Of a stretch of DNA of 64,000 nt, positions 43,625 through 56,285 are shown piece by piece. Positions within the stretch are counted from its first letter, which is position 1. The number at the start of each line of letters is the position of its first letter. The notes beneath the pieces are model-generated. The model ran no database searches, had not been told where the DNA came from, and saw only the letters and a program-made list of their open reading frames with translations. The stretch is from NCBI RefSeq assembly GCF_947488715.1, contig NZ_CANLAG010000003.1:434001-498000 (forward strand), in the 5' to 3' direction. A program made the position numbers and the translations under genes. This DNA comes from an uncultured Tateyamaria sp. (GTDB lineage: Bacteria; Pseudomonadota; Alphaproteobacteria; Rhodobacterales; Rhodobacteraceae).

Positions 43625-44635
43625 TTAGGCGGCGCGGCGTTCCAGTGCGCGGCGGGCTTCGTTTTCCTCGGTGATCAGGACATAGGCCCACACCAGAATG
43701 GGCAGTGCGACGATACCGCCAACAGGGCCCCAGAGCCACAGGCCAAAGACGATGGCGAGGAACACGGCCAGAGGGTTGAGCGACAGGCGGCGTCCGACGA
43801 ATGTCGGGGTGACGAATTGCGCCTCGATCAGGTTCAGGACCAGGAAGACGGCGGGGGGCAACAGCACCATACCGCCGGAAAAATGCGTCATGCCTGCGAT
43901 CAAGAGGGACACAACCATGATGGCGGGCCCCAGGTAGAGTACAAAGTTCAGCAGGAAGGCGGCGGCGCCCCAGACCATTGGATCAGGCACTCCCATCACG
44001 GTCAGGGCCGCGGCGACGGCCATCCCAAGCGTGGCGTTCACGGCGGCAATCGTCACAAAGTAGTGGGACACGGCGCGGTCGGCGGTGGTCAGCCGGCGTC
44101 TGGCTCTGGGGCCAAGCCAGTCGTAGATGTCGCTGCGCGTGAGCAGACAGAAAAACAGCGTGCCAAGGGCGATCAGCGCCTGTGCCATCAGGTTCGGCGC
44201 GAGCCAGAGGGCATCGATGACCGTTGGCATTGCCTCTTCCATCGCCTCCTCGCCACGTTCGGCGAGCTGCCCTTCGAGTGCTTCGAGGCCGCGCAGGGCA
44301 AGCGTCAGGTCAGACATCCATGTGCGCAGGTGATCAGAGACGCGTGGCAGGACGTTGACGAGTTCCATGATAATCGGTCCGGCCCACAGGGCGATGAGTG
44401 CCAGTGCGACAACCGCAAAAACAAGCGCGCCAAGTGCGCCGACGACATGCGGCAGGTTCAACCGTGCCATGAGGCGCATCGCGGGCGTCAGTACAGTGGC
44501 GAGGGTCAGCCCCAAGACGATGGGCGCCGACACGGCCTGGCCAAATTTGAGCGCGCCGATGCAGGCGATGGATGCGATTGCTATCAGGCAGACCGTTTGC
44601 AGGTCTGCCCGACCAAAGGGACTTCGGTCATCCAT
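43625..44635 (-). CDS. AI-2E family transporter
   Basis: 336 residues with about seven to eight membrane segments: KFGQAVSAPIVLGLTLATVL near the start and a C-terminal FLAIVFGLWLWGPVGGIVALP, the AI-2E (PerM/TqsA) family signature. Members export small molecules, or possibly ions as reported for Na+/H+ antiport; the substrate is unknown here. ATG 44635; overlaps the preceding gene by 8 bases. Last gene of a stress operon that starts at an EcfG-type promoter near 46281. Confidence 0.9.
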   Translation of the reverse strand: MDDRSPFGRADLQTVCLIAIASIACIGALKFGQAVSAPIVLGLTLATVLTPAMRLMARLNLPHVVGALGALVFAVVALALIALWAGPIIMELVNVLPRVSDHLRTWMSDLTLALRGLEALEGQLAERGEEAMEEAMPTVIDALWLAPNLMAQALIALGTLFFCLLTRSDIYDWLGPRARRRLTTADRAVSHYFVTIAAVNATLGMAVAAALTVMGVPDPMVWGAAAFLLNFVLYLGPAIMVVSLLIAGMTHFSGGMVLLPPAVFLVLNLIEAQFVTPTFVGRRLSLNPLAVFLAIVFGLWLWGPVGGIVALPILVWAYVLITEENEARRALERRAA

Positions 44636-45413
44636 GTGTTGCGCCGCGCCCGTTGCCCTGATTGTCGAGCGCGTCGCGGGCTGCGGCCATGCCGCTGTCG
44701 ATGGCCGATTTACTGCGGGCCTCAAGGGTCGCGATTTCGTCGCGCAGAACGGCTTCGGCGTCGCGCAGCAGCTGGTCACGCTTTGCCCCCAGCACTTCGG
44801 CCTCGCGGCGTGTGCCGGGCAGGGCGGCCCCGATCAACGCGCCGATCCCGGCGGCCACGAGGGTGGTGACGATGGGCCGTTCCTGGTGCGTTTTCTGAGC
44901 TGCGGCGGCCAGTTTGGCGCTGTGGCGTTCAAGCTTTTCCTGTGCCGCGATGGCGTTCAGGCGCGCGGTGCGCACCTTGGCGCGCGCATCGGGGCTGAGG
45001 CGGTCCAGTCCGGCGTCCAGCTTGATCCGCAGGGCCTGCGCGCGGCCTGGACCAACATCGACATTGTCCGCTTGAACACGAGCCTGTTGTTTGTGCCGGG
45101 CGGCGGCACGCGCGATGCGTTTGTTGGCCTCACCGCTCAACGGTGCAGACGATGTCGGCTGTGGTTCTGGCGAGGGGGCGGGGCGTTGCGGCAGGGCGAA
45201 CATCGCAATGCCAGCACCGACAACGGCCACGCTCAGCGGGTTGGCGCGGGCGCGCCGGGTTACGAGGCGCGCGAGATCAGCCAGTTGCGTTGTGGCAGCA
45301 TGCCCGGCCGCTTCGGGTGCGCGGTTTGACAACAAGGCGTTAAGCGCCAGTGTCAAACCTTCGCGGTGCCCGTCAGCGTCGGCGCGGGCGGTGTCCATTG
45401 AATTACGAGACAT
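44628..45413 (-). CDS. Hypothetical protein of the stress operon, alanine-rich
   Basis: 261 residues from ATG 45413, preceded by GGAG. A basic, alanine-rich protein with a hydrophobic stretch at about 62-75 and a glycine-zipper-like hydrophobic segment at about 184-200 (LVAAGIGALIGAALPG), the second followed by a helix rich in Arg, Glu and Ala (coiled coil probable). It resembles an extended version of the DUF883/YqjD type of membrane-tethered helical protein. Overlaps the gene before by 11 bases and the AI-2E gene by 8. Function unknown. Confidence 0.75.
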   Translation of the reverse strand: MSRNSMDTARADADGHREGLTLALNALLSNRAPEAAGHAATTQLADLARLVTRRARANPLSVAVVGAGIAMFALPQRPAPSPEPQPTSSAPLSGEANKRIARAAARHKQQARVQADNVDVGPGRAQALRIKLDAGLDRLSPDARAKVRTARLNAIAAQEKLERHSAKLAAAAQKTHQERPIVTTLVAAGIGALIGAALPGTRREAEVLGAKRDQLLRDAEAVLRDEIATLEARSKSAIDSGMAAARDALDNQGNGRGATHG

Positions 45414-45795
45414 GAGTTTTCTCCGTGACGAGGCGTATGGTTTCAGCGGCATGTGCCGCCGTGCGTGTGGGTGCGATGGCCTTTGGGGACAGGCGGTTCA
45501 GACCCAGCCACAGGGCAAGTGCCGATACAATCAACAGGCCTGTGCCCGTTGCGAGCGCGGCGAGCCAAGCGGCGAGACCGAGTGCCGTGAGCCCGAGAAA
45601 CAGAGCCGCTGTCAGAGCAAAGAGTGCGCTGAACGTGGCGGCAAAGCCGATCGCGGCGAGGATCAAGCCGGTGCGCGCCGCCCGCAGGTTCTGCGCCATC
45701 TCGCCACGGGCCAAACGCCATTCGCTGATCAAAAGGCCGCGCAGATGCGCCGCCACGTTTTCGATTTGCGCAAGGGGCGAAGGGTGGGGTTGCAT
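45403..45795 (-). CDS. Phage holin-like/YqjE-type membrane protein
   Basis: 130 residues from ATG 45795. Two strong membrane segments (about 45-70 and 78-100) follow an amphipathic N-terminal helix, and a short charged tail ends the protein. This is the layout of the putative Actinobacterial holin-X/YqjE family, which in enterobacteria is encoded next to yqjD. Nothing points to phage. It shares one base with the upstream stop (TAATG), so translation is coupled in the order DUF883-like, YqjE-like. Confidence 0.75.
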   Translation of the reverse strand: MQPHPSPLAQIENVAAHLRGLLISEWRLARGEMAQNLRAARTGLILAAIGFAATFSALFALTAALFLGLTALGLAAWLAALATGTGLLIVSALALWLGLNRLSPKAIAPTRTAAHAAETIRLVTEKTHVS

Positions 45796-46226
45796 TACGA
45801 CTGCTCCAGATGATTTGCCCACGGATCATGTGCGCCCGCCACGTCGTCAGGCCGCGCACCGGCCTTGAGAAAGCGGGCCGCGGCAAAGCCCAAGAGCGCC
45901 GCGCCGCCCAAAACAAGCGCGGGGTTGCGGCGTGTAAAGTCGCCAGCCTGACGGGCCAACGCCTCGATATCTGATGACTTGAGGTGATCGGCAACGTGCC
46001 CAAGCGCGCTGATCGCGTGATCCAACATCGGGTCGGCGATATGGTTCTCGGGCAGTGCATCGCGCGCAGCCTCAGTGGCGTCAGCGACCTTGGACACATG
46101 CGCGGCGGCGTCAGATTTTACGCTGTCTGCAGTGCGGGATGCGGTGTCCTTGATACCGTCGGCAATCTGGTGTCCGGCATGCGCAATGTCGTCCTGTACC
46201 TGAAGGTGCGGTTCGCTACGGCTCAT
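45795..46226 (-). CDS. DUF883/YqjD-like membrane-anchored protein
   Basis: 143 residues from ATG 46226, which has AGAGGA 7 bases upstream; two earlier ATGs lack a site. A helical, charged N-terminal part (ADGIKDTASRTADSVKSD) is followed by a C-terminal membrane segment in the pattern RRNPALVLGGAALLGFAAARFLKA, the ElaB/YqjD/DUF883 mark. In E. coli such proteins tie ribosomes to the membrane in stationary phase. First gene of the four-gene operon with the holin-like, alanine-rich and AI-2E genes. Confidence 0.82.
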   Translation of the reverse strand: MSRSEPHLQVQDDIAHAGHQIADGIKDTASRTADSVKSDAAAHVSKVADATEAARDALPENHIADPMLDHAISALGHVADHLKSSDIEALARQAGDFTRRNPALVLGGAALLGFAAARFLKAGARPDDVAGAHDPWANHLEQS

Positions 46227-46280
46227 GAAACTATCCTCTTGCATATGGGTGGTGCGACCGTGTCGCCCAGTTGGATAGTC

Positions 46281-46305
46281 AACGAACGATGCCGCTGTTT
46301 GTTCC
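46281..46305 (-). promoter_or_regulatory. EcfG-type promoter of the DUF883/AI-2E operon
   Basis: On the minus strand: GGAAC (46305-46301), 16-base spacer, CGTT (46284-46281). This fits the alphaproteobacterial general stress consensus GGAAC-N16/17-CGTT. It lies 54 bases before the start at 46226. Confidence 0.82.
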
Positions 46306-46384
46306 AAAATAGATTGGGCGGGTGTGCCCCTTGGCCGTCATTCGTTCGGCGCGCTCTGCCGCCCGCTGACGCCGCTCAGGCAAC

Positions 46385-46419
46385 AAAAAGGCGCGCTGCC
46401 AGGACAGTGGCAGCGCGCC
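46385..46419 (-). terminator. Rho-independent terminator of the PRC-barrel gene
   Basis: Perfect 12-base stem GGCGCGCTGCCA (46390-46401)/TGGCAGCGCGCC (46408-46419) with loop GGACAG, followed on the minus strand by five T (46389-46385). It lies 75 bases after the PRC-barrel stop. Confidence 0.88.
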
Positions 46420-46493
46420 TGCGTTGGACCGGATGGGGATATCCCGGTCACTCTCAGGGGCATGGCGGACGGGCCAAGCCCCCTGGTTTCGCC

Positions 46494-46964
46494 TTATGAC
46501 TCGTATGCGGGCAAAGCTTCCAACTGGGATTCGGTCATCGCGGCGTAGACGCGCATATCGTCGCCTTCGGCTTCTTGCTTGATCGTGAGGCTGTCAAAGC
46601 TGACCAACACGTCTTTTTCACCGATGGCGAGGAAACCGCCGACGCCCAGAACAGCGCCCTGGATGGTGCCGTCGGTCGAGACGATCACGCTGTCGATTTC
46701 GCCGATCCATTCATCGTTTGCATCGTAGACGCGCATGCCCGTCAACTCTTCGGTTGTCAGCTCTGTCGCCGGTGCAATAACCCACCCGTCGCGTTCAATC
46801 TGAGGCGCGTCGAACGTGGCCAAGTCGTCGGATTTCCAGTTCTCGTCCATCACGATGGGGCTGTCGCCATACGCGGTCTCGTTCTTGGTTGCTTTGGCTG
46901 TGTCACCAGCGATCAGCGGTGTTGCAACAGTCAGGGCAAGGACGGACGCAAAAATGCGTTTCAT
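46494..46964 (-). CDS. Exported PRC-barrel domain protein
   Basis: 156 residues with a signal peptide (FASVLALTVATPLIAG). The second half is a PRC-barrel: LTGMRVYDANDEWIGEIDSVIVSTDGTIQGAVLGVGGFLAIGE, with the turn positions of this small beta-barrel. Such exported PRC proteins are frequent in alphaproteobacteria and often belong to the stress regulon; the exact role is unknown. Its own EcfG-type promoter lies 58 bases upstream and a strong terminator follows. Confidence 0.88.
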   Translation of the reverse strand: MKRIFASVLALTVATPLIAGDTAKATKNETAYGDSPIVMDENWKSDDLATFDAPQIERDGWVIAPATELTTEELTGMRVYDANDEWIGEIDSVIVSTDGTIQGAVLGVGGFLAIGEKDVLVSFDSLTIKQEAEGDDMRVYAAMTESQLEALPAYES

Positions 46965-47021
46965 AGTGTTTCCTCCATTTTAATCATGGTGTTAGCGCAG
47001 CGGCGTGCTGCTTGGGAATGA

Positions 47022-47046
47022 AACGGGCGACGCTGTGAAAGGTTCC
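47022..47046 (-). promoter_or_regulatory. EcfG-type promoter of the PRC-barrel gene
   Basis: Minus strand GGAAC (47046-47042), 16-base spacer, CGTT (47025-47022), 58 bases before the start at 46964. It forms a divergent pair with the forward site at 47084. Confidence 0.82.
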
Positions 47047-47083
47047 CGGTCGGTCGAAAATTATTTGGTGTTTTGCCGACAAT

Positions 47084-47109
47084 GGAACGATTGTGCCGTG
47101 GTTTGGGTT
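47084..47109 (+). promoter_or_regulatory. EcfG-like promoter of the 47142 operon
   Basis: GGAAC (47084-47088), 17-base spacer, GGTT (47106-47109); one mismatch from CGTT. It lies 32 bases before the ATG at 47142, the same spacing as the other forward sites of this island. Confidence 0.65.
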
Positions 47110-47141
47110 GTGCCTGTGAACGTCAGAAAAGGAGAGACCCA

Positions 47142-47309
47142 ATGTCTGCACCCGACACGAACATTAAGGCCCAAGCCTGGTATCACCGCCCCTCGTTGAT
47201 CGGCATGGCGGTTGTCCTCGTCGGCGCGCTTGTTTTTGTCTTTGGTGCGCAACTCGCACCCGATGATGACGCCGCCCTGACCGAAGCACCGATTGCAGCA
47301 ACCGAGTAA
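47142..47309 (+). CDS. Small single-pass membrane protein
   Basis: 55 residues. ATG 47142 is preceded by AAAGGAGAG; the longer frame from 47073 would start before the promoter. One membrane segment (about 20-38, LIGMAVVLVGALVFVFGAQ) and a short acidic tail. No family recognised. It begins a two-gene unit with the next small protein, probably under EcfG control. Confidence 0.75.
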   Translation: MSAPDTNIKAQAWYHRPSLIGMAVVLVGALVFVFGAQLAPDDDAALTEAPIAATE

Positions 47310-47320
47310 AGGAGAGCGAC

Positions 47321-47470
47321 ATGGAAGCCCCTATTATCCCAATTCTGTTTATGCTGACCGCCTTTGCGGTGATCGTATGGGCATGGATGAGCAAGCGCGC
47401 GACCGAACAGCGGATGGATGACCCTGACGCGCCGAAATCGACGCTCGCCAAGGACGCGCCCGATCACTGA
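47321..47470 (+). CDS. Small single-pass membrane protein, second of pair
   Basis: 49 residues, below the usual gene-finding cut-off. ATG 47321 has AAAGGAGAGCGAC upstream, as strong as that of its partner 11 bases before. One membrane segment (about 4-22, PIIPILFMLTAFAVIVWAW), then a basic and an acidic tail ending KDAPDH. The good ribosome site, spacing and topology support a real gene. Confidence 0.7.
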   Translation: MEAPIIPILFMLTAFAVIVWAWMSKRATEQRMDDPDAPKSTLAKDAPDH

Positions 47471-47486
47471 CCGCAAGATTGCAAAG

Positions 47487-47516
47487 ATCCCGCGACACCG
47501 ATGTGTATCGCGGGAT
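47487..47516. terminator. Hairpin between small membrane gene and FNT gene
   Basis: Perfect 9-base stem ATCCCGCGA (47487-47495)/TCGCGGGAT (47508-47516), 12-base loop, then ATTTG. Lies between two convergent genes and could end both transcripts; T-tracts are short. Confidence 0.6.
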
Positions 47517-47532
47517 ATTTGCCGTGTGAGGG

Positions 47533-48372
47533 TCATGCGTTTGATTTGACCTCGGGCATGATCTGGGCCCAGACCAAGACCGTAAAGATGACTGTGCCGC
47601 CCACCACATTGCCGGCCAGAACGGGTATAAAAAATTCGAACAGCGCTGATGCCAGACCCAGGTCACCCTGCACCAACAGGTAAGCCATTTCGACGGACCC
47701 GGCGACGATGTGCGTGAAATCACCCAAGGCAATCAGCCAGGTGAACAGAAAGATCAACGCCACCTCACTGCCCTTGGCGCTGGGCAACATCCACACCAGC
47801 GCGGCGATCAGGACGCCGGCGGGAATCCCGCGCATGAACCCTTCGCCCGGTGCCATGCTTGTGGCGTGTGCGCTGAGCTGTTGAAAGGCATCAGCCACGT
47901 CTTCGGCGAGGACAGGGGCATAGGCGAGGAACGTCGCGACCACAAAGGCGCCAATCACGTTGGCGGCGATCACGATAGTCCATAATTCGACGGTGCGGAT
48001 CAGACAGGCACGCGATCGTTGGACCAGAACAGGGGCGACCGTGGTGATGGTGTTTTCGGTAAACAACTGCATCCGCCCGAGGATGACGAGCAAGAAGCCG
48101 AACGTATACCCCATGTTTTCAATGATATAACGCCATTCCGCGTCTGGAAGCCGTGCGCGCAAGAGGGCCTCGCCCAGCACGGAAAACGATATCAGGATGC
48201 CTGCGGCGATGCCCGAAAACCAAAGAGACCGGTTGGGACGTTCCAACTCTTCTTCGCCATTGCGGCGGATGGCTTCAAAGATCAGTTTGGGCGACAGCGG
48301 TGCCACTTCGTCGACGGCATCTGCCTCGTCGGCGTGGTCGATGAGGTCTGATGGGTCTGAGTGGACGGACAT
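47533..48372 (-). CDS. Formate/nitrite transporter family (YfdC-like) channel
   Basis: 279 residues with about six membrane segments after an acidic 30-residue N-terminus. Family features: GRMQLFTENTITTVAPVL (FTEN replaces the usual FTGN), AANVIGAF and a symmetric GDFTHIVAGSVEMAYLLV. FNT proteins carry small monovalent anions such as formate, nitrite or hydrosulfide. The Glu in place of Gly at the pore motif is typical of the YfdC branch, whose substrate is not known. An EcfG-type promoter lies 43 bases upstream. Confidence 0.88.
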   Translation of the reverse strand: MSVHSDPSDLIDHADEADAVDEVAPLSPKLIFEAIRRNGEEELERPNRSLWFSGIAAGILISFSVLGEALLRARLPDAEWRYIIENMGYTFGFLLVILGRMQLFTENTITTVAPVLVQRSRACLIRTVELWTIVIAANVIGAFVVATFLAYAPVLAEDVADAFQQLSAHATSMAPGEGFMRGIPAGVLIAALVWMLPSAKGSEVALIFLFTWLIALGDFTHIVAGSVEMAYLLVQGDLGLASALFEFFIPVLAGNVVGGTVIFTVLVWAQIMPEVKSNA

Positions 48373-48415
48373 ATATGTCTCCGGGTTGCAGTGCGGATTG
48401 CACCATTCAGACAGA

Positions 48416-48441
48416 AACGCATGGGACGCGGGATGGGTTCC
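48416..48441 (-). promoter_or_regulatory. EcfG-type promoter of the FNT gene
   Basis: Minus strand GGAAC (48441-48437), 17-base spacer, CGTT (48419-48416), 43 bases before the start at 48372. Divergent from the site at 48522. Confidence 0.82.
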
Positions 48442-48521
48442 AACGGAAATTTTGCCTGACGCACAGGGCGCGTGGACAGTTGCGGGCAGCCGCGTGTTTC
48501 AAGGTTCCGTGGGGAATGAAG

Positions 48522-48546
48522 GGAACAAATCCGCATCTGCGACGTT
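48522..48546 (+). promoter_or_regulatory. EcfG-type promoter of the DUF2945 operon
   Basis: GGAAC (48522-48526), 16-base spacer, CGTT (48543-48546), 31 bases before the ATG at 48578. Confidence 0.85.
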
Positions 48547-48577
48547 GACCCCGTGAAGACCAAACGGAGACATCACA

Positions 48578-48787
48578 ATGGCCGCAATCGGCGACCGGGT
48601 CACATGGAACTGGGGCAACGGCACCGGATCTGGACAGGTCAAACAGGTATTCACCGACACGGTGACCAAGACGATCAAAGGCACCGAGGTCACGCGAAAC
48701 GCCACTGACGACAATCCCGCCTATCTGATCGAACAGAAAGACGGGGATTGCGTCCTCAAAAGCAGCTCGGAGATCGAGGCTGCGTAA
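48578..48787 (+). CDS. DUF2945 (HVA1/Tudor-like) small protein
   Basis: 69 residues. The opening GDRVTWNWGNGTGSGQV and the motif GTEVTRNATDDNPAYLIEQ match DUF2945, a small beta-barrel family related to the hypervirulence-associated Tudor-like domain. It is cytoplasmic and has no known biochemical role; members are often stress-induced. An EcfG-type promoter lies just upstream and a small membrane gene follows after 21 bases. Confidence 0.88.
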   Translation: MAAIGDRVTWNWGNGTGSGQVKQVFTDTVTKTIKGTEVTRNATDDNPAYLIEQKDGDCVLKSSSEIEAA

Positions 48788-48808
48788 TCGACCAAAAGGA
48801 GAAATATC

Positions 48809-49006
48809 ATGGGTATCGAAGTTGCCGGCATTGGCGGTTTTATCCTTCTCATCCTCGTCATCTGGGCCATCGTGTCCATCGTCAGTTCGGGCGCCAGCAC
48901 CGGGAGCAAGGTGTTGTGGGTCTTGCTGGTGCTGGTCTTGCCAGTGATTGGCTTTATCGTATGGCTTATCGCCGGGCCGCGCGGCCGCGGTCGCGCCAGC
49001 ATCTAA
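48809..49006 (+). CDS. Small membrane protein (PLDc_N-like)
   Basis: 65 residues with two membrane segments (about 7-25 and 36-54) and the ending VLPVIGFIVWLIAGPRG, the mark of the PLDc_N domain (N-terminal membrane part of cardiolipin synthases, found alone in many stress genes). Preceded by AAAAGGAGAAAT. Cotranscribed with DUF2945 and closed by a strong terminator. Confidence 0.82.
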   Translation: MGIEVAGIGGFILLILVIWAIVSIVSSGASTGSKVLWVLLVLVLPVIGFIVWLIAGPRGRGRASI

Positions 49007-49045
49007 CGCCGTACACACGACGCGCCATTCCCTCGGTGCGGAAAC

Positions 49046-49080
49046 AGGCCCGCCACATCCAGTGTGGCGGGCCTTTCTCG
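49046..49080 (+). terminator. Rho-independent terminator
   Basis: Perfect 12-base stem AGGCCCGCCACA (49046-49057)/TGTGGCGGGCCT (49063-49074), loop TCCAG, followed by TTCTCG. It ends the DUF2945 operon and could also stop the convergent Crp/Fnr gene. Confidence 0.85.
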
Positions 49081-49109
49081 TTTCTCCGGCTTGGTCACAG
49101 GCTGTTCGT

Positions 49110-49838
49110 CTAGATCAAGGGGCGCGTTGCAAACCTGTCTTCTTCGATTTGTGCGATTTCGCCCAGCCGTTCGAGGTTGTGGACCGTCAACTGATCGTGG
49201 GACCACGTGACGACCTGCTCTTCGCGCAGGCTGGCCAGCGTCTTGTTGGTATGGACCAGCGACAGACCCAGCGCATCGGCGAGATCCTGTTGGCGGTAGG
49301 GCAGCGGGACGGAGTTGCCCGCACCCAGCTTTACGTCGCTGAGCCGCGTGAAAAAGCGGTGCATCGCCCAAGCCACTTTGGCGCGCGCGTCAAGTTGCCC
49401 GACAACGGCAAGCGCCTCGCCCAAAAATTGTTCCTCGACCGCTGCGATGCGCGTGAGGTCATAGGCGCGGTCCGGATGGGTTGTGAAAAGCGTCCACAGT
49501 TCCGATCGGTTGAACGTACACAGCTGCATTCGCGTCGACGCCTCGACCGAGTGGCCCATTTCGGACATCACCCCGGCCTGCAAGCCGATGAAATCGCCGG
49601 GCAGGACAAAACCGATCACCTGGCGTCGCCCGCTTTGCAATGTCTTGTAACGCACCCCCATCCCTCGAAGGCATGTGAACAGATGTGTCGAGGATTGGCC
49701 CTGCGCCATGATCTCAGTGCCGGGTTGGGCCTCCAGCTCTCCGGTTTTGAACCTTTCCATAAAGGCAATTTCCGAGGTGGACATGGGAAGGAACGCATCA
49801 ATTTTGCGCAGTGGACAGTTTGAACAATTGGTCGACAT
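49110..49838 (-). CDS. Crp/Fnr family transcriptional regulator
   Basis: 242 residues. N-terminal cyclic-nucleotide-binding-like beta barrel (about 20-140) and C-terminal helix-turn-helix (YRQQDLADALGLSLVHTNKTLASL, about 178-201). Early Cys5-x2-Cys8 (CSNCPLR) resembles the FNR cluster, but a full set of four correctly placed cysteines is not evident, so oxygen sensing is doubtful. It has no EcfG-type site. Divergent from the degenerate receiver gene; may control stress or respiratory genes nearby. Confidence 0.9.
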   Translation of the reverse strand: MSTNCSNCPLRKIDAFLPMSTSEIAFMERFKTGELEAQPGTEIMAQGQSSTHLFTCLRGMGVRYKTLQSGRRQVIGFVLPGDFIGLQAGVMSEMGHSVEASTRMQLCTFNRSELWTLFTTHPDRAYDLTRIAAVEEQFLGEALAVVGQLDARAKVAWAMHRFFTRLSDVKLGAGNSVPLPYRQQDLADALGLSLVHTNKTLASLREEQVVTWSHDQLTVHNLERLGEIAQIEEDRFATRPLI

Positions 49839-49921
49839 TTTTTCCGTCTTCTATGTCACAGTTTAATTCGCGACGTTTCTGGCTGTGGCAAGAGGGGTGT
49901 CTGTGGCCATGGGAATGAAAA

Positions 49922-50293
49922 ATGACTCCTCGCGATCTAAGCCGACAATCCGCGTTGGTGGTTGGCACCAATGCGGTCGAAATCATGGATATCGAAGAGT
50001 ATCTGACACTGTCCGGCTGGAGCACACCCGTCATAGCACAAGCGTTTGATGAGGCAGAGCGCATTCTGGAACGTGCGGATGGCGCCATTCACCTCGTGAT
50101 CGTTTTGCTGCCACAAGGGCACCCGGACGCAGCCGCCATTATCCGCACCTGCATCTCGCTTGGCATTGGCCTCATTGTGATGAACGGCGCGCGGACGAAG
50201 CTCGTGGATGGCCAAGTCATCATGCTGACCCGGCCATTTGTTGAGCGCGACCTTGATGAAGCGTTGCACGCTTTGGGTCTAGCGGTCGTTTAG
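49922..50293 (+). CDS. Degenerate response-regulator receiver protein
   Basis: 123 residues. The fold order (ALVVGTNAVEIMDIEEYL, LVIVLLPQGHPDA, GLIVMNGA, MLTRPFVERDLDEAL) matches a stand-alone receiver domain. The phosphoacceptor position after LVIV is Leu rather than Asp, the acidic pair near the N-terminus is missing, and the conserved Lys of KPF is Arg (RPF). It therefore cannot be phosphorylated in the usual way and may act by binding only. Lies beside the Crp/Fnr gene; the stop overlaps the convergent gene. Confidence 0.78.
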   Translation: MTPRDLSRQSALVVGTNAVEIMDIEEYLTLSGWSTPVIAQAFDEAERILERADGAIHLVIVLLPQGHPDAAAIIRTCISLGIGLIVMNGARTKLVDGQVIMLTRPFVERDLDEALHALGLAVV

Positions 50294-50595
50294 TCGCGCC
50301 GCGCCAGCGCAAAGCCCACCAGCACACCAAGGCCCACGGCCCCTGCGACGGCCATGCCCGGATTGCGGCGCACGGTTGCAAGCGCACTGTCCTGGGCGCT
50401 TTTTGCCGTCTTTTCAACACTATGCGCCGCTGTTTGCAGTGCTTCGCGTCCGTCATGAGCGACGGCACCAACCGTTTCGCGCAGGGTGTCGGCTTGGGCG
50501 CGCGCACTGTCCGCCCATTCGGCGGCGGTCGCGCTGATGCTGGTGTCAGATCCGTTGGGTGTCGGCAGAATGGATGTGGTTCGAGCGTTCGACAT
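50290..50595 (-). CDS. DUF883/ElaB-like membrane-anchored protein
   Basis: 101 residues from ATG 50595 with AAGGA upstream. An amphipathic helical part (ADSARAQADTLRETVGAVAHDGREAL) ends in RRNPGMAVAGAVGLGVLVGFALARRD, a C-terminal membrane anchor of the same ElaB/YqjD type as the gene at 45795. Second member of the family in the island. Has its own EcfG-type promoter. Its stop overlaps the receiver gene stop by 4 bases (convergent). Confidence 0.8.
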   Translation of the reverse strand: MSNARTTSILPTPNGSDTSISATAAEWADSARAQADTLRETVGAVAHDGREALQTAAHSVEKTAKSAQDSALATVRRNPGMAVAGAVGLGVLVGFALARRD

Positions 50596-50627
50596 TGTAA
50601 GTCCTTTCGCGGTTGCTTCGGACGTTA

Positions 50628-50653
50628 AACGAGTGGTGCGGCGAAATTGTTCC
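50628..50653 (-). promoter_or_regulatory. EcfG-type promoter of the 101-residue gene
   Basis: Minus strand GGAAC (50653-50649), 17-base spacer, CGTT (50631-50628), 32 bases before the start at 50595. Confidence 0.85.
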
Positions 50654-50666
50654 ATTGCCTTTTTGG

Positions 50667-50692
50667 GGAACCAAATGACGGCAGATGGCGTT
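50667..50692 (+). promoter_or_regulatory. EcfG-type promoter of the DUF1328 gene
   Basis: GGAAC (50667-50671), 17-base spacer, CGTT (50689-50692), 31 bases before the ATG at 50724. Only 13 bases separate it from the reverse site, making a compact back-to-back pair. Confidence 0.87.
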
Positions 50693-50723
50693 GACCCTTC
50701 GAACCGAGACGAAAGGAAACACA

Positions 50724-50891
50724 ATGCTTTACTGGTCTGTTATCTTCTTAATCATCGCTCTTGTGGCCGCTGTCTTTGGATTTGGTGGTATCGCAGCGGC
50801 GTCCACGGGTGTCGCACAAATTCTGTTTGTGCTGTTCATCATTCTGTTTGCAATCACGCTGGTGGTGCGGTTGCTGCGTGGCCGTCCCTGA
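50724..50891 (+). CDS. DUF1328 (YtjA-like) small membrane protein
   Basis: 55 residues. [25 protein letters not shown], then a second hydrophobic segment [19 protein letters not shown], matches DUF1328/YtjA. ATG 50724 has AAAGGAAACACA upstream; an earlier start at 50685 would precede the transcription start. Two membrane segments, inner membrane. Members are often part of general stress regulons; biochemical role unknown. Confidence 0.9.
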
Positions 50892-51050
50892 TGCGCGCAG
50901 GGCGCATGATCTGATCATTCCTCCCTTCCTGAATTGCCACGAGTTCTACTACGCCGTTGGTGCGGACTGGGGTCGAACACAGCAAGTCTCAGCCCGCGTA
51001 CCATTTCATTCAAAACGTACATTCTCGCCGCGAAACGTTGCACAGCGTGT

Positions 51051-51076
51051 GGAACCCAGCGGCGGGGCTTGGCGTT
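51051..51076 (+). promoter_or_regulatory. EcfG-type promoter of dps
   Basis: GGAAC (51051-51055), 17-base spacer, CGTT (51073-51076), 36 bases before the ATG at 51113. Confidence 0.87.
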
Positions 51077-51112
51077 AGATTTACAACCGAGAGACACAAA
51101 AGGAGAGGCATC

Positions 51113-51613
51113 ATGTCAAACGCATTGAACGTCGTCCCATCCGAAGATGAAGTCAGCACAGGTGTGCGTGACACCGCCGCAATTGCCGAAGGTCTCGCCG
51201 ACGTTTTGGCAGACACATACCGCTTGGTGTTCAAGTCGCACGCCTATCACTGGAACGTCGAGGGGCCGCTGTTCTACTCGGTCCACAACCTGACGGAAGA
51301 GCACTACGGCAACATGTTCGGCGCCGCCGACGATCTGGCAGAGCGTATCCGCGCGCTGGGTCACCTGGCACCAACGTCGATGGCCGACATCGTGGGGCGG
51401 TCGCGCATTGACGACCGACACGGGCCGTCGAGCACTGAAGACATGGTTTTGGATCTGGCCGCTGACCACGAACGGCTGGCGCACCGGCTGCACGCGCTGA
51501 TCGAGATGGTGGAAGGTCGCAAGGACCCGGTGACCGAAGACATGGCAACGGAGCGCAGCGCGTTCCACGAGAAAGCCGCGTGGATGCTGCGGGCGCTGGC
51601 CAAGTCTAGCTAA
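51113..51613 (+). CDS. dps: Dps family DNA-protection/ferritin-like protein
   Basis: 166 residues. Ferroxidase motif residues are present: LVFKSHAYHWNVEGPLF, then EEHYGNMFGAADDLAERIRALG, with the conserved His, Trp, Asp and Glu. Dps forms a 12-subunit shell, oxidises ferrous iron with peroxide and shields DNA under stress or starvation. ATG 51113 with AGGAGAGG upstream; longer frames start before the promoter. Directly under an EcfG-type promoter, next to phyR. A terminator follows. Confidence 0.95.
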   Translation: MSNALNVVPSEDEVSTGVRDTAAIAEGLADVLADTYRLVFKSHAYHWNVEGPLFYSVHNLTEEHYGNMFGAADDLAERIRALGHLAPTSMADIVGRSRIDDRHGPSSTEDMVLDLAADHERLAHRLHALIEMVEGRKDPVTEDMATERSAFHEKAAWMLRALAKSS

Positions 51614-51642
51614 GGGTTAACAAGTGAGTGGGTGAAGAGTGG

Positions 51643-51675
51643 CCCCCGCGGCATCCGCCGCGGGGGACTTTTTTT
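51643..51675 (+). terminator. Rho-independent terminator of dps
   Basis: Stem CCCCCGCGGC (51643-51652)/GCCGCGGGGG (51657-51666), loop ATCC, then AC and seven T (51669-51675). The T-run overlaps the phyR stop codon on the other strand. Confidence 0.93.
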
Positions 51676-52483
51676 ATGCTTTGAGGATAGCAGAGGACGC
51701 AAAGAACATGGCCTGGCTGATGGCGGATCGCACCTGTTCCTCGGTGTAGGGTTTGGAGATCAGGAAGGCGGGCTCAGGACCCTCGCCGGTCAGCAGGCGT
51801 TCCGGGTAGGCCGTGATGAAAATCACAGGAATATCGCCTGCATCTGCCGTGATCCGGTTGACCGCGTCGATCCCGCTGGAGCCGTCCGCCAATTGGATAT
51901 CCGACAGGATGAGGTCCGGGCGCTCGCGTGCAAAAAGGTCAATCGCCTGCGTCTCGGTGCGTGCGACGCCTGTGATCTGGTGGCCCAGATCCGCCGCGAT
52001 GTTTTCCAGATCGACCGCAATGATCGCTTCGTCCTCGATAATCATCACCTTGCCACTGACCGACTTGGCCATTTCGCTATAGGCAATGTCGAGCAGCGCG
52101 CCGATTTCGTCCGCATCCGTCTGCATGATGTAGGCCGATTGCTCTGGTGTGAACTCCTCGAGCGTGCGCAGCAACAGCACCTCACGGGTGCCGGCGGTGA
52201 GGGTCGCCAAGTGGCGTTGTGCACGGGCGGCTGGCCCGTCCTCATCACTGCCAAGTTGCGCCCCACTGGACACCCAGATGGTGTGAAACACGGCGAACAG
52301 AGCGGTTTTGGGCGCCACGTCATCGGAAAACAGGTCTGGATCCGACAAGATCGCCTCAAGCGCTGTCGCGGCATAGGCATCACCGCGCGACTGACTGCCT
52401 GTGAGCGCACGCGCATATCTGCGCAGATAGGGCAGGTTGGGTCCAATTTTGTCTGCCAGGCTCGGCGTGCTAGACTGCGACAT
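51674..52483 (-). CDS. phyR: PhyR, anti-anti-sigma response regulator
   Basis: 269 residues. Residues 1-135 are a sigma-factor-like domain (EVLLLRTLEEFTPEQSAYIM) that mimics EcfG; residues 145-265 are a receiver domain with acidic IIEDE, phosphoacceptor Asp195 in LILSDIQLADG and SKPY near the end. When phosphorylated it exposes the sigma-like part, binds NepR and frees EcfG. Convergent with dps and divergent from nepR-ecfG, the standard arrangement. Confidence 0.96.
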   Translation of the reverse strand: MSQSSTPSLADKIGPNLPYLRRYARALTGSQSRGDAYAATALEAILSDPDLFSDDVAPKTALFAVFHTIWVSSGAQLGSDEDGPAARAQRHLATLTAGTREVLLLRTLEEFTPEQSAYIMQTDADEIGALLDIAYSEMAKSVSGKVMIIEDEAIIAVDLENIAADLGHQITGVARTETQAIDLFARERPDLILSDIQLADGSSGIDAVNRITADAGDIPVIFITAYPERLLTGEGPEPAFLISKPYTEEQVRSAISQAMFFASSAILKA

Positions 52484-52516
52484 TTGATGTCACTCCCGTT
52501 TTTTTGCAATTTTCAT

Positions 52517-52548
52517 GGAACAAATGCCGCTGCGGCGCATTTAGTTCC
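52517..52548. promoter_or_regulatory. Overlapping face-to-face EcfG-like promoters of phyR and nepR
   Basis: Forward: GGAAC (52517-52521), 16-base spacer, CATT (52538-52541), 32 bases before nepR ATG. Reverse: GGAAC (52548-52544), 17-base spacer, CATT (52526-52523), 39 bases before the phyR start. Both have CATT in place of CGTT. The two elements occupy the same 32 bases. Confidence 0.6.
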
Positions 52549-52573
52549 CAAATAGTTGCAGGTTTTTGTGCTT

Positions 52574-52753
52574 ATGACCCAGAAAATGAACCGAGCGGGC
52601 AAGACATCAAGTGTTGCCGATGAGATCGACAAGAATATCAAACGCGCCTTTGATGACGTGGCCAATCAGGCGTTGCCGTCACGCTTTACGGACCTTCTTG
52701 ATCAACTTCGCGCGCAGGATGGTGCCGGTTCGGAGGGCAAGCATGACAAATGA
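52574..52753 (+). CDS. nepR: NepR anti-sigma factor
   Basis: 59 residues from ATG 52574; an ATG four codons later is also possible. The core IKRAFDDVANQALPSRFTDLLDQLR is the NepR signature (FDDV-x4-LP-x-RF-x-DLLDQL). NepR holds EcfG inactive and is taken up by phosphorylated PhyR. Ribosome site weak. The last 11 bases overlap the start of ecfG, so the pair is translationally coupled and made in balance. Confidence 0.92.
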   Translation: MTQKMNRAGKTSSVADEIDKNIKRAFDDVANQALPSRFTDLLDQLRAQDGAGSEGKHDK

Positions 52754-53294
52754 TCCTCGTGACGAGCTTGTCACCCATATTGGCCCGATGCGCGCCTTTG
52801 CCATCAGCCTGACCCGCAATGCGTCTTTGGCCGATGACATGGTGCAGGATGCGCTGGTCAAAGCGTGGAGCAATATCGACAGCTTTCAGGCGGGCACAAA
52901 CATGCGGGCCTGGTTGTTCACAATCCTGCGGAACACCTATTATTCGCATCACCGTAAGCGCCGGCGCGAAGTGGAGGACGTCGAGGGCGCGTTGTCCGAA
53001 AAGCTGGCGCAAAAGCCGGACCATGATGGCCGTCTGCAAATGCGCGACTTTGCCGCTGCGTTCGAAGAGTTGCCCGAAGATCAGCGCGAGGCTTTGGTTC
53101 TGGTGGGGGCAGGCGGCTTTTCATACGAAGAAGCTGCGCAGACCTGCGGTGTTGCCGTTGGCACAATCAAGAGCCGTGTCAACCGTGGTCGCGCCAAGTT
53201 GGTTGAACTGATGGGCGTCTCTGACGATGAACCGATGGAAGTGACCGCAGCCGTGACACAGGGCATCGTTGCGATGAACCAGAGCATCGCGTGA
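52743..53294 (+). CDS. ecfG: EcfG general stress sigma factor
   Basis: 183 residues. Sigma region 2 (NASLADDMVQDALVKAWSNIDSF, MRAWLFTILRNTYYSHHRKRRRE) and region 4 (FEELPEDQREALVLVGAGGFSYEEAAQTCGVAVGTIKSRVNRGRAKL), the EcfG/ECF15 layout. It directs RNA polymerase to GGAAC-N16/17-CGTT sites, eight of which lie in the flanking 6 kb. ATG 52743. Ends TGATG with the kinase gene. Confidence 0.96.
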   Translation: MTNDPRDELVTHIGPMRAFAISLTRNASLADDMVQDALVKAWSNIDSFQAGTNMRAWLFTILRNTYYSHHRKRRREVEDVEGALSEKLAQKPDHDGRLQMRDFAAAFEELPEDQREALVLVGAGGFSYEEAAQTCGVAVGTIKSRVNRGRAKLVELMGVSDDEPMEVTAAVTQGIVAMNQSIA

Positions 53295-55036
53295 TGTTGC
53301 CGTTTTTCGGCAAGCTGCGCGTCAGGCTGGTTTTGCTGACCCTCTTGGCGTTGCTGCCGCTGGGTGTCATCGCTATGGGGCAGGCGGTTCGGTCCGCTGA
53401 CATCAACCGCGACCGGATACAGCAGTCGCTGATTGACGCGACTAACGTAGCTGCCGTCGATCAGAGCGCCAAGATCAAACAGGCGGTCGGCGCCGGAGAG
53501 GGGCTGGCCGCGATTGTACCGGTTGTGGATCTGGACACGTGCCGGGCCGCCATGTCCCAATTGCTAAGCAGCAACCCGAATTATGCCTTTGCTGGTTTCA
53601 TTGGAATTGACGGCGTCCTCGAATGCAGCAGCTCTGACGATCTGGTCATGGACTTTTCGGAGTTTCCATCCTGGCAGGCCGCCGTCGATCGATCCGACAC
53701 ATTTGTCGAAGTGAACGCCGATGGGACGGTCAGCGGGCAATCCGTTGTGATCGTCAATGTGCCAGTACGCGATGCGGGTGAAATGCTGGGTTTCGTGTCG
53801 CTGTCATTGCCCCGGACGGCCGTGACGTCGGCGGCTCCATTTGAGGAAAGCGAAGATGTCGCCCTGTTTGGCGTCGCGACATCCGGCGCTGTGTTTTCAT
53901 TGTCAAAAGGGGCAACAGATGTCGCGCAGTACCTGCCACGCGACATGTCGCCCTCGGATCTGCGCGACAAGGCGGGGCGCATTTTCTTTGCAACCGACCG
54001 CGCCGGAGAAAGGCGCGCGTTTTCAGTAACCGAGACGGTGGCTGACAGTTTCTTCATTGTCGGCAGTTGGCCCCGGTCCGTGGTGTTCGGGAACGAACAG
54101 TGGAAACAGGCCCTGACGCCTGTGCTGTTTGCGGTGCTGATGTGGGTGGCCAGCATGTCCGTCGCGTCCTTTGGGCTGGACCGGATGGTGTTGCGCCATT
54201 TGGCTGATTTACGCTCTGCGATGCGCCAATTTGCGTTGGGGGAACGCAATTCCGAAGGCCTGAGCCTGAACAATGCGCCGAATGAGTTCAAGGATGCGGA
54301 ACGTGCGTTCAATCGGATGGCGTTGTTGATCACCGAAGCCGAAGCGGCGCGTTTGACCGACCTGCACGACAAGGAAGTGCTGCTGCGCGAGGTGCACCAC
54401 AGGGTCAAGAACAACCTCCAGATGATCGCGTCGATCATGAACCTTCAGGCGCGGGCGGCGCGTACTGATGACGTGCGCGATGTTCTGGCGAGTTTGCAAC
54501 GGCGTGTGCGTGGTCTCGCGATGTTGCACCGCTCGCTCTACACCCAGCCTGAGACAAGCCAGGTGGACGCGCGCGATCTTGTTTCGGCGGTTGTGTCGGA
54601 CACGTCAGCCATTTTGCCGGATCAGGCGCTTGCCATTGAGACGGACCTCAGTTCGGCTTTGTTGTACCCGGACCAAGCTGTGCCGTTGTCCATGTGGGTG
54701 ACCGAGGCGCTGACCAATGCGGTCAAATACGTGGGGCGACCACCCGACGGCACCGCCAGCATAACCGTCACCATGCGCACGGACGTCCCCGGTGAGGTTG
54801 CGTTGGAAATCGCCAACACGCTCGGAACACCGTTGGTGGCCAGCCCAAGTGGGATCGAGAGCACTGGGTTGGGCGCAAAGCTGATGCTTGCCTTTTGTCG
54901 GCAGTTGGACGGTCAGGTTGAGACGGAAGAGACGGATCATCTCTATGTGCACGTGTTGCGTTTTGCTGTGCAGGACTTTGACCCGGAACCAGCAGACTTG
55001 GTGAGCGAAGAACGCGAAGCTGCACGCGTCGGGTAG
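53294..55036 (+). CDS. HWE/HisKA_2-type sensor histidine kinase
   Basis: 580 residues. A first membrane segment (about 10-30), an extracytoplasmic sensor (about 35-265) with cysteines DTCRAAM and LECSSSD, a second membrane segment (about 275-300), a HAMP-like region and then HisKA_2 with LLREVHHRVKNNLQMIASIMNLQ (His368/His369) plus an HATPase region. Kinases with this histidine motif phosphorylate PhyR. ATG 53294 shares bases with the ecfG stop. Probably the stress-sensing partner of the locus; signal unknown. Confidence 0.93.
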   Translation: MLPFFGKLRVRLVLLTLLALLPLGVIAMGQAVRSADINRDRIQQSLIDATNVAAVDQSAKIKQAVGAGEGLAAIVPVVDLDTCRAAMSQLLSSNPNYAFAGFIGIDGVLECSSSDDLVMDFSEFPSWQAAVDRSDTFVEVNADGTVSGQSVVIVNVPVRDAGEMLGFVSLSLPRTAVTSAAPFEESEDVALFGVATSGAVFSLSKGATDVAQYLPRDMSPSDLRDKAGRIFFATDRAGERRAFSVTETVADSFFIVGSWPRSVVFGNEQWKQALTPVLFAVLMWVASMSVASFGLDRMVLRHLADLRSAMRQFALGERNSEGLSLNNAPNEFKDAERAFNRMALLITEAEAARLTDLHDKEVLLREVHHRVKNNLQMIASIMNLQARAARTDDVRDVLASLQRRVRGLAMLHRSLYTQPETSQVDARDLVSAVVSDTSAILPDQALAIETDLSSALLYPDQAVPLSMWVTEALTNAVKYVGRPPDGTASITVTMRTDVPGEVALEIANTLGTPLVASPSGIESTGLGAKLMLAFCRQLDGQVETEETDHLYVHVLRFAVQDFDPEPADLVSEEREAARVG

Positions 55037-56211: not shown

Positions 56212-56285
56212 TGGAGGCGAGTACCGGAATCGAACCGGTGTACACGGATTTGCAATCCGCTGCGTCACCACTCCGCCAACTCGCC
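56212..56285 (-). tRNA. tRNA-Cys (GCA)
   Basis: 74 bases including an encoded CCA (56214-56212). Acceptor GGCGAGT pairs with ACTCGCC, discriminator T, T-arm with GGTTCGATTCC, anticodon stem around TTGCAAA with anticodon GCA (56253-56251). Delivers cysteine to UGC/UGU codons. The usual antisense open frame is a by-product. Confidence 0.96.

What the first reader, a model, noticed from the sequence alone, without database searches (positions are those of the whole stretch)
43625..55036. General stress response island with nine or more EcfG-type promoters around phyR-nepR-ecfG
Seen: eight sites match GGAAC-N16/17-CGTT (one has GGTT), at 46281, 47022, 47084, 48416, 48522, 50628, 50667 and 51051, each 31-58 bases before a start codon and on the correct strand. 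They arise in divergent pairs. Known: this is the EcfG consensus. Inferred: the island is a self-contained regulon in which the switch (kinase, PhyR, NepR, EcfG) sits among its targets, chiefly small membrane proteins, an FNT channel and Dps. Clustering of so many targets beside the regulators is unusual, since they are normally scattered.
Basis: partly seen in the sequence, partly recalled or inferred. Interest (0 to 1): 0.78.

Follow-up and report, generated by a model that had tools for sequence, protein, structure and literature searches.

The report
Stress-response locus with mirror-image master promoter
The genes that switch on this bacterium's general stress response sit among many of their own targets, an arrangement common in its relatives, and the switch's two halves appear to be read from one mirror-image DNA element that RNA polymerase can probably use in only one direction at a time.

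Summary
Seven perfect GGAAC-N16/17-CGTT sites and one GGTT variant lie where stated, 31-57 bases before start codons. None of 100 shuffles reaches the window's count. The genome has 79 perfect matches, most of them chance; about half of the excess over wrong-spacing controls (about 14, imprecise) lies in this 4.8 kb.

The regulators are PhyR, NepR, EcfG and a PhyK-like kinase. Clustering is not peculiar to this genome: 135 distinct phyR loci of the same family hold 542 correctly spaced sites against about 38 expected. "Self-contained" is too strong.

Between phyR and nepR-ecfG (52517-52548) lies a 32-bp inverted repeat that reads as an EcfG promoter in both directions, fully interleaved. A GGAAC...GTTCC element of 30-33 bp is there in 115 of 134 loci (scrambled controls 0-4). 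Spacers stay at 16-17 while other distances vary. In other families where both promoters were found, 10 of 16 loci have them back-to-back.

Likely mechanism (inferred): RNA polymerase-EcfG binds in one orientation at a time, tying PhyR output to NepR-EcfG output. Here both -10s are CATT, which weakens the case for this genome. New variant of a known kind.

The parts
43625..44779 (-). AI-2E family transporter gene (frame start; true start not settled), last gene of the leftmost minus-strand cluster
   Evidence: PF01594 E=2e-38
44628..45452 (-). protein of unknown family (membrane association is my reading only)
   Evidence: no Pfam match; relatives in 19 of 134 loci
45403..45822 (-). Holin-X (Phage_holin_3_6) family membrane protein
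   Evidence: PF07332 E=4.5e-15
45795..46226 (-). DUF883-like small membrane protein (my reading), probable EcfG target
   Evidence: no Pfam match for 45795-46232; EcfG site upstream; relatives in 20 of 134 loci, 7 with strict site
46281..46305 (-). EcfG promoter GGAAC-N16-CGTT
46494..46964 (-). PRC-barrel protein, probable EcfG target
   Evidence: PF05239; of 24 loci with a relative only 2 have a strict site before it
47022..47046 (-). EcfG promoter GGAAC-N16-CGTT
47084..47109 (+). EcfG promoter variant GGAAC-N17-GGTT
   Evidence: C/GGTT is the published consensus in M. extorquens (PMC4814048 passages)
47142..47309 (+). 55-aa small membrane protein
   Evidence: no Pfam match; 7 of 9 relatives have a strict site before them
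47321..47470 (+). 49-aa small membrane protein, probably same transcript
   Evidence: no Pfam match
47533..48372 (-). formate/nitrite (FNT) family channel
   Evidence: PF01226 E=9e-52; 6 of 15 relatives have a strict site
48416..48441 (-). EcfG promoter GGAAC-N17-CGTT
48522..48546 (+). EcfG promoter GGAAC-N16-CGTT
48578..48787 (+). Hva1/TUDOR small protein
   Evidence: PF11160 E=3e-21
48809..49006 (+). PLDc_N small membrane protein
   Evidence: PF13396; 45 of 134 loci, 22 with strict site
50290..50595 (-). DUF883-like membrane protein
   Evidence: searched as 50290-50592: PF05957 E=0.0013, below cut-off; 27 of 36 relatives have a strict site; start corrected
50628..50653 (-). EcfG promoter GGAAC-N17-CGTT, back-to-back with the next
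50667..50692 (+). EcfG promoter GGAAC-N17-CGTT
50724..50891 (+). DUF1328 small membrane protein
   Evidence: PF07043; 84 of 134 loci, 46 with strict site, 61 with GGTT/CATT included
51051..51076 (+). EcfG promoter GGAAC-N17-CGTT
51113..51613 (+). Dps/ferritin-like protein
   Evidence: PF00210 E=2e-25; 14 of 30 relatives have a strict site
51674..52483 (-). phyR, anti-anti-sigma response regulator
   Evidence: PF22029, PF22233, PF00072; NF006623 344 bits against cut-off 240
52517..52548 (.). interleaved bidirectional EcfG promoter: forward GGAAC 52517-52521 with CATT 52538-52541 (N16) towards nepR-ecfG; reverse GGAAC 52548-52544 with CATT 52526-52523 (N17) towards phyR
   Evidence: GGAAC...GTTCC of 30-33 bp at this place in 115 of 134 loci
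52574..52753 (+). nepR, anti-sigma factor
   Evidence: PF18557
52743..53294 (+). ecfG sigma factor
   Evidence: Sigma70_r2/r4_2, PhyR_sigma2; NF009198 306 bits against cut-off 270
53291..55036 (+). HisKA_2/HWE histidine kinase, PhyK-like
   Evidence: PF07568, PF07536; best NCBIfam match PhyK, 179 bits, below its cut-off of 750

Best explanation
This is the general stress response locus of a bacterium of the order Rhodobacterales. The partner switch (kinase -> PhyR~P -> NepR released from EcfG) sits among many of its own EcfG-transcribed targets. Once EcfG is free it also transcribes its own switch genes from one 32-bp inverted repeat that is an EcfG promoter in each direction. The -10 of each promoter lies one or two bases from the -35 of the other, so RNA polymerase-EcfG can occupy the element in only one orientation. 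Each initiation therefore makes either PhyR (which keeps EcfG free) or NepR plus EcfG (inhibitor plus activator), so the two sides share one site and their ratio is set by the element rather than by two independent promoters. Shown: the genes, the promoter-type sites, their clustering, the element, its near-fixed geometry, its conservation and its place. Inferred: transcription in both directions, mutual exclusion, ratio setting.
For: Regulator families. Site statistics. Family-wide clustering: over 135 distinct phyR loci (window included), spacers 16 and 17 have 334 and 208 sites, each of twelve other spacers 10-25. GGAAC...GTTCC of 30-33 bp upstream of phyR in 115 of 134 loci (window included); both promoters strict in 55, one in 45, neither in 15. 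In the same stretches the inside-out pattern occurs in 4, the reversed letters in 1 and a direct repeat in 0 of 134. Of 155 CGTT half-sites found with any gap from 0 to 6 allowed, all have spacer 16 (103) or 17 (52), while the CGTT-to-opposite-GTTCC gap is 1, 2 or 3 (21, 129, 5): promoter spacing is at least as tight a constraint as the half-site. Stricter element GGAACNNAAYG-N10/11-CRTTNNGTTCC in 66 of 394 family genomes, two copies in one and one in the others, reversed control 0 in every row; the 30 copies fetched, of 67, all lie between phyR and nepR/ecfG. The window's CATT/CATT form with the same spacers is shared by an uncultured Tateyamaria (L195), whose central bases differ. CATT occurs among EcfG-dependent S. 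melonis promoters (#1442, #1831 in Table 1 of PMC6599016, passages). That phyR and nepR-ecfG are divergent and both EcfG-dependent in most Alphaproteobacteria is published (PMC4814048 passages; PMC8103513 passages); mapped starts for both exist in S. meliloti (rsiA1, rsiB1; PMC3616915 passages).
Against: No transcription data for this genome. In the window neither -10 is CGTT; both are CATT, and the window does not match the stricter family pattern. The loose pattern GGAAC-N20..23-GTTCC alone is not rare: 14 places in this genome, against 28 for its reversed control; its weight comes from its place and its conservation. 19 of 134 loci lack the element, eight of them titled Paracoccus. In E. 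coli, bidirectional promoters at basal activity are too weak for polymerase competition to matter (PMC12825309 abstract), so exclusion may have no consequence. The loci are related and not independent, and the 80 named ones are the best of 441. The half-site gap is 2 in 129 of 155, so a dimer-type symmetry is not excluded.
Confidence: 0.66

Rival explanations
1. The two promoters are real but independent in effect. Their overlap is inherited and has no regulatory consequence, because each fires too rarely to hinder the other.
For: Basal sigma70 bidirectional promoters in E. coli do not compete (PMC12825309 abstract). phyR-nepR intergenic regions are short; the nepR matches begin mostly about 70-150 bases from phyR.
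Against: The length stays at 30-33 bp in 115 of 134 loci while the centre of the element is unconserved. Mere compaction should allow other offsets. A 32-bp version exists in a distant family (f42, three genomes).
Confidence: 0.28
2. The inverted repeat is chiefly an operator for a dimeric regulator, for example the neighbouring Crp/Fnr-type protein, and the EcfG-like match is secondary.
For: Strong dyad symmetry; gap of 2 in 129 of 155 half-sites. A Crp/Fnr-type gene lies in 47 of 114 loci with the element against 1 of 19 without (window left out; could be shared ancestry).
Against: 67 of 114 loci with the element have no such match in the stretch held (some stretches are short). Half-site spacing flexes (gap 1-3) while EcfG spacing stays at 16/17. 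Half-sites match the single EcfG sites of the loci, also in preferring C after GGAAC (224 of 384).
Confidence: 0.11
3. In this particular genome the element has decayed: CATT is inactive, and phyR and nepR-ecfG are read from another promoter.
For: CGTT is the commonest -10; CATT is the nepR-side -10 in 7 of 115 and the phyR-side -10 in 3 of 115 elements, window included.
Against: A relative with a different centre keeps AATG/CATT at both places (L195). In family f42 CATT faces phyR in 3 of 3 genomes. CATT precedes EcfG-dependent genes in S. melonis (PMC6599016 passages), and up to 14 different -10 boxes were reported in Sphingopyxis (PMC7083833 section 10).
Confidence: 0.18
4. One reading: a self-contained regulon that is unusual because its targets lie beside the regulators.
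For: About half of the genome's excess of perfect sites lies in 4.8 kb.
Against: Clustering is family-wide. Promoter-like sites also lie elsewhere. phyR-bearing family genomes carry about 10.8 more perfect sites than phyR-less ones, against about 4.0 per locus near phyR (542 in 135).
Confidence: 0.1

Closest known systems
PhyR-NepR-EcfG (sigma ECF15) general stress response locus of Alphaproteobacteria
   Same: Same genes, same divergent layout, same kinase neighbour, same promoter consensus; EcfG control of both phyR and nepR-ecfG is published for most of the class (PMC4814048, PMC8103513, passages seen). R. sphaeroides has the same order with a Crp-Fnr gene beyond phyR (PMC5830050, section 14 read).
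   Different: Here many further targets cluster at the locus, and the phyR and nepR promoters are interleaved on one inverted repeat. Of 46 outside-family phyR loci read, both promoters were found in 16, back-to-back in 10 of them.
Bidirectional (pseudo-symmetrical) sigma70 promoters of E. coli (Warman et al., PMC12825309; abstract and introduction read)
   Same: One symmetrical sequence directs divergent transcription, and two polymerases cannot bind at once.
   Different: Those share a -10 element with start sites most often 18 bp apart. Here each direction has its own -35 and -10, the whole promoters are interleaved, predicted starts lie about 30 bp apart, and both directions would use the sigma factor that the element itself serves.
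Ordinary back-to-back divergent EcfG promoters (for example 50628/50667 in this window)
   Same: Same sigma factor, same consensus, divergent genes.
   Different: Their -10 elements face outward and do not overlap the opposite promoter.

Membership tests
PhyR anti-anti-sigma factor | Sigma-like N-terminal domain plus C-terminal receiver domain | tested here: met
   PF22029, PF22233, PF00072 in order; NF006623 344 bits, cut-off 240
NepR anti-sigma factor | NepR domain in a small protein encoded just before ecfG | tested here: met
   PF18557 46 bits, cut-off 25.7; no NCBIfam match; overlaps the ecfG start
EcfG (ECF15) sigma factor | ECF sigma domains 2 and 4, encoded after nepR and opposite phyR | tested here: met
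EcfG (ECF15) sigma factor | Directs transcription from GGAAC-N16/17-CGTT promoters | not testable with these tools
   The motif is enriched near the gene; no transcription data
PhyK sensor kinase | HWE/HisKA_2 kinase with full PhyK architecture | tested here: inconclusive
   HisKA_2 and HWE_HK met; PhyK model 179 bits, far below its cut-off of 750
EcfG promoter (the eight listed sites) | GGAAC, spacer 16 or 17, C/GGTT, close before a start codon | tested here: met
EcfG promoter (the phyR/nepR pair in the window) | GGAAC, spacer 16 or 17, C/GGTT | tested here: inconclusive
   -35 and spacing met; -10 is CATT in both
Bidirectional promoter in the sense of Warman et al. | Symmetrical sequence that can bind RNA polymerase in two exclusive orientations | tested here: inconclusive
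   Symmetry and overlap met by sequence; binding not testable
Bidirectional promoter in the sense of Warman et al. | Shared -10 element | tested here: not met
   Two separate -10 elements 11 bases apart in the window

The most novel reading that the evidence does not exclude
The phyR/nepR-ecfG element is a one-site ratio setter. By forcing RNA polymerase-EcfG to choose, at each firing, between the anti-anti-sigma factor and the anti-sigma/sigma operon, it fixes the PhyR:NepR:EcfG ratio during positive feedback whatever the stress level. It is selected for that, is typical of this Rhodobacterales family and arose separately in at least one other alphaproteobacterial family, while most other families with both promoters keep them back-to-back.
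Probability: 0.33. Interest if true: 0.72.

Novelty: new variant of a known kind. Interest (0 to 1): 0.52.

Why it matters
Positive feedback on both an activator and its inhibitor is a general problem: the switch works only if the proportions hold. A single symmetrical promoter that serves both arms would be a very compact solution, and it is directly testable because one or two bases disable one direction at a time. It would also extend bidirectional promoters from housekeeping sigma factors to an alternative sigma factor that reads its own switch. The family-wide clustering of targets beside phyR gives a motif-based way to predict stress-response genes in a large group; in my searches few papers treated this response there.

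Tried and rejected
The site at 54298 (spacer 18, inside the kinase gene) and the one at 36169 were set aside as chance. RNA hairpin or attenuator readings of the inverted repeat were not pursued, since predicted starts lie at its edges. A class-wide pattern scan hit one outside-family genome (G352, upstream of a 179-aa single-domain response regulator); the reversed control also hit in two genomes (G246, G376), so that hit may be chance. That pattern's spacing does not cover the f42 elements in either orientation and missed them; they came from reading upstream regions. A PDB search with the f42 PhyR gave 3n0r as best match, which I recall as C. crescentus PhyR, so f42 may be Caulobacteraceae; not established. 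My first outside-family table had minus-strand loci unoriented and was redone. My first comparison of phyR-bearing and phyR-less genomes used 108 of 149 genomes picked by hand, and its printed note about completeness is not accurate; one search supersedes it with 146, leaving out three with partial PhyR (G022, G031, G142) and counting G114 as phyR-bearing. One search has no correction for base composition or kinship; the reversed motif differed between the groups the other way (median 21.3 against 27.5 per Mb). Testing whether outside sites lie in genes by open frames does not discriminate: 66 of 71 overlap a frame of 100 aa or more on some strand, and so do four of my five candidates. Literature: ten searches and eight papers opened (PMC5830050 section 14 and passages; PMC7083833 section 10 and passages; PMC12825309 abstract and introduction; passages only of PMC6599016, PMC4814048, PMC8103513, PMC3073932, PMC3616915). 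What I saw does not describe interleaved phyR/nepR promoters; the library holds only part of the literature, and the early papers on this response were not read.
Full report
WHAT WAS CLAIMED AND WHAT IS THERE. The finding lists eight EcfG-type sites between 46281 and 51076. All eight exist as stated: seven exact GGAAC-N16/17-CGTT and one GGTT, 31-57 bases before an ATG. None of 100 shuffles reaches the window's eight matches, one of which (36169) is far outside the island. In the 4.13-Mb genome there are 79 exact matches; the motif written backwards has 131, so by that control there is no genome-wide excess. Wrong spacers are the closer background: six spacers of 10-15 give 200 and six of 18-23 give 187, so about 64.5 of the 79 are expected by chance. 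The excess of about 14.5 (counting error roughly 9) is half accounted for by the seven here. Of the 72 matches elsewhere, 71 were looked at in their flanks; 24 of them have some candidate start with a ribosome-binding-like sequence within 160 bases, 15 places were printed, and by eye five look like promoters, 21-43 nt before an ATG (L001, L132, L145, L146, L159). So the regulon is concentrated here but probably not confined here.

GENES. Pfam and NCBIfam confirm PhyR and EcfG, and Pfam confirms NepR; the kinase is HWE/HisKA_2 but below the PhyK model's cut-off. Targets include PRC-barrel, FNT, Hva1-TUDOR, PLDc_N, DUF1328 and Dps proteins and several small proteins without a family.

IS THE CLUSTERING UNUSUAL? 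No. A PhyR search over 149 genomes of the same family found a match over the cut-off in 63. I fetched 60 regions of up to 20 kb around PhyR from 57 of these (three genomes gave two; left out were the window's own genome and G021, G091, G114, G119 and G147): 258 correct-spacing sites against 22 for the reversed motif. A scan of named genomes gave 441 relatives, of which the best 80 were kept. Merging six duplicates gave 134 distinct loci, 135 with the window. Spacers 16 and 17 have 334 and 208 sites, and each of twelve other spacers has 10-25. The densest 1-kb bin is the one just on the nepR side of the phyR start (166 sites), next the second on the other side (75), with fewer sites towards 10 kb. 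Of 110 loci with at least 8.5 kb on both sides, the window included, 24 have seven or more strict sites and 12 have none. Matches that recur beside phyR: DUF1328 in 84 of 134, PLDc_N 45, DUF883-type 36, Dps 30 (some stretches are cut by contig ends). phyR-bearing family genomes have 15.8 perfect sites per Mb against 13.1 in phyR-less ones (63 and 83 genomes, 3 left out; Mann-Whitney p=1.4e-5, without correction for kinship or composition), an excess of about 10.8 per genome. Against about 4.0 per locus near phyR, in a partly different set, that suggests that roughly a third of real perfect sites lie next to the switch, as a family trait.

The phyR-nepR intergenic region holds GGAACAAATGCCGCTGCGGCGCATTTAGTTCC at 52517-52548. 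Read forward it is GGAAC-N16-CATT, read backward GGAAC-N17-CATT. In many relatives the same place holds forms such as GGAACCAAACG-N10-CGTTTGGTTCC. A GGAAC...GTTCC element of 30-33 bp lies 13-78 bp before the phyR start in 115 of 134 loci with enough sequence, window included: both directions strict in 55, one in 45, none in 15. Scrambled versions of the pattern occur in 4, 1 and 0 of the same 134 stretches. The arms are conserved (the two GGAAC blocks by selection of the pattern), the centre is not. The loose pattern by itself is common: 14 places in this genome against 28 for its reversed control.

PROMOTERS OR OPERATOR? With the gap between CGTT and the opposite GTTCC left free (0-6), all 155 CGTT half-sites fall at spacer 16 or 17, while the gap takes 1, 2 and 3 (21, 129, 5). 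In 31-bp elements the gap is 1 in 12 of 12, which keeps spacer 16. That favours two interleaved promoters over a rigid dimer site, without excluding the latter. C after GGAAC is also preferred in single sites (224 of 384). An association with a Crp-type neighbour exists (47 of 114 against 1 of 19), but 67 loci have the element without such a match.

UNIQUENESS AND SPREAD. A stricter form of the pattern occurs in 66 of 394 family genomes, two copies in one and one in the others; the reversed control reads 0 in every row. The 30 copies that were fetched, of 67, all lie between phyR and nepR/ecfG. The window itself and another genome of its genus do not match that stricter form. Outside the family I read 46 of 47 PhyR places found in 289 genomes of the class: 10 have back-to-back pairs (6 of them with 5' ends 7-10 bp apart), 6 have face-to-face pairs (f42: three at the 32-bp geometry; f37: two at 27 bp; one with 130 bp), 13 show one direction only and 17 none with the motifs used. 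So the interleaved layout is typical of this family but not unique to it. That the family (f1) belongs to the Rhodobacterales follows from six loci whose 200 bp upstream of phyR are identical to named records, for example Palleronia rufa, and from the closest named relative, Tateyamaria; one of the six bears a title that does not fit (see noticed).

CATT. The window's -10s are CATT on both sides. A Tateyamaria relative keeps AATG/CATT with the same spacers and a different centre (L195). f42 has CATT facing phyR in three of three. CATT stands before EcfG-dependent genes of S. melonis (PMC6599016, passages). This makes activity likely but not shown.

MECHANISM. EcfG control of phyR and nepR-ecfG is established elsewhere (PMC4814048, PMC8103513, passages). 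New here, as far as I saw, is the geometry: each -10 lies one or two bases from the opposite -35, so simultaneous binding should be sterically excluded (inference, by analogy with PMC12825309). I expect a shared site to couple the amounts of PhyR and NepR-EcfG. Whether competition matters at real firing rates is open; in E. coli it does not at basal activity but can on activation (PMC12825309 abstract).

VERDICT. Observation confirmed; interpretation partly supported; the locus is a known kind with a conserved promoter variant that I did not find described in what I read.

Noticed in passing
49110-49838: Crp/Fnr-type regulator on the minus strand, FnrL-like but far below the FnrL cut-off; a relative lies in 49 of 134 phyR loci, as also described for R. 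sphaeroides (PMC5830050).
   Followed up: partly
49922-50293: 123-aa orphan protein, receiver-like by my reading, without a Pfam match; relatives in only 8 of 134 loci.
   Followed up: no
L329:1501-1532: Only outside-family hit of the class-wide element pattern: upstream of a 179-aa single-domain response regulator in a genome of family f95; the reversed control hit in two genomes, so it may be chance.
   Followed up: partly
L278, L282, L286: Three genomes of family f42 carry a 32-bp interleaved element at phyR with CATT towards phyR and CGTT towards nepR.
   Followed up: partly
G047, G065, G004, G399: Genomes with two full PhyR loci each.
   Followed up: no
More than half of the sampled family genomes (86 of 149) have no PhyR match over the family cut-off, so the response may be patchy in this family; some of these assemblies are incomplete.
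   Followed up: no
L202: A record titled Enemella evansiae (an actinobacterium) carries a phyR locus of this alphaproteobacterial family, identical upstream of phyR to L110; the title or the assembly looks wrong.
   Followed up: partly
56212-56285: tRNA-Cys (gca) on the minus strand just beyond the island.
   Followed up: no
L195: Closest named relatives by PhyR (76% identity) are an uncultured Tateyamaria and Shimia ponticola.
   Followed up: no
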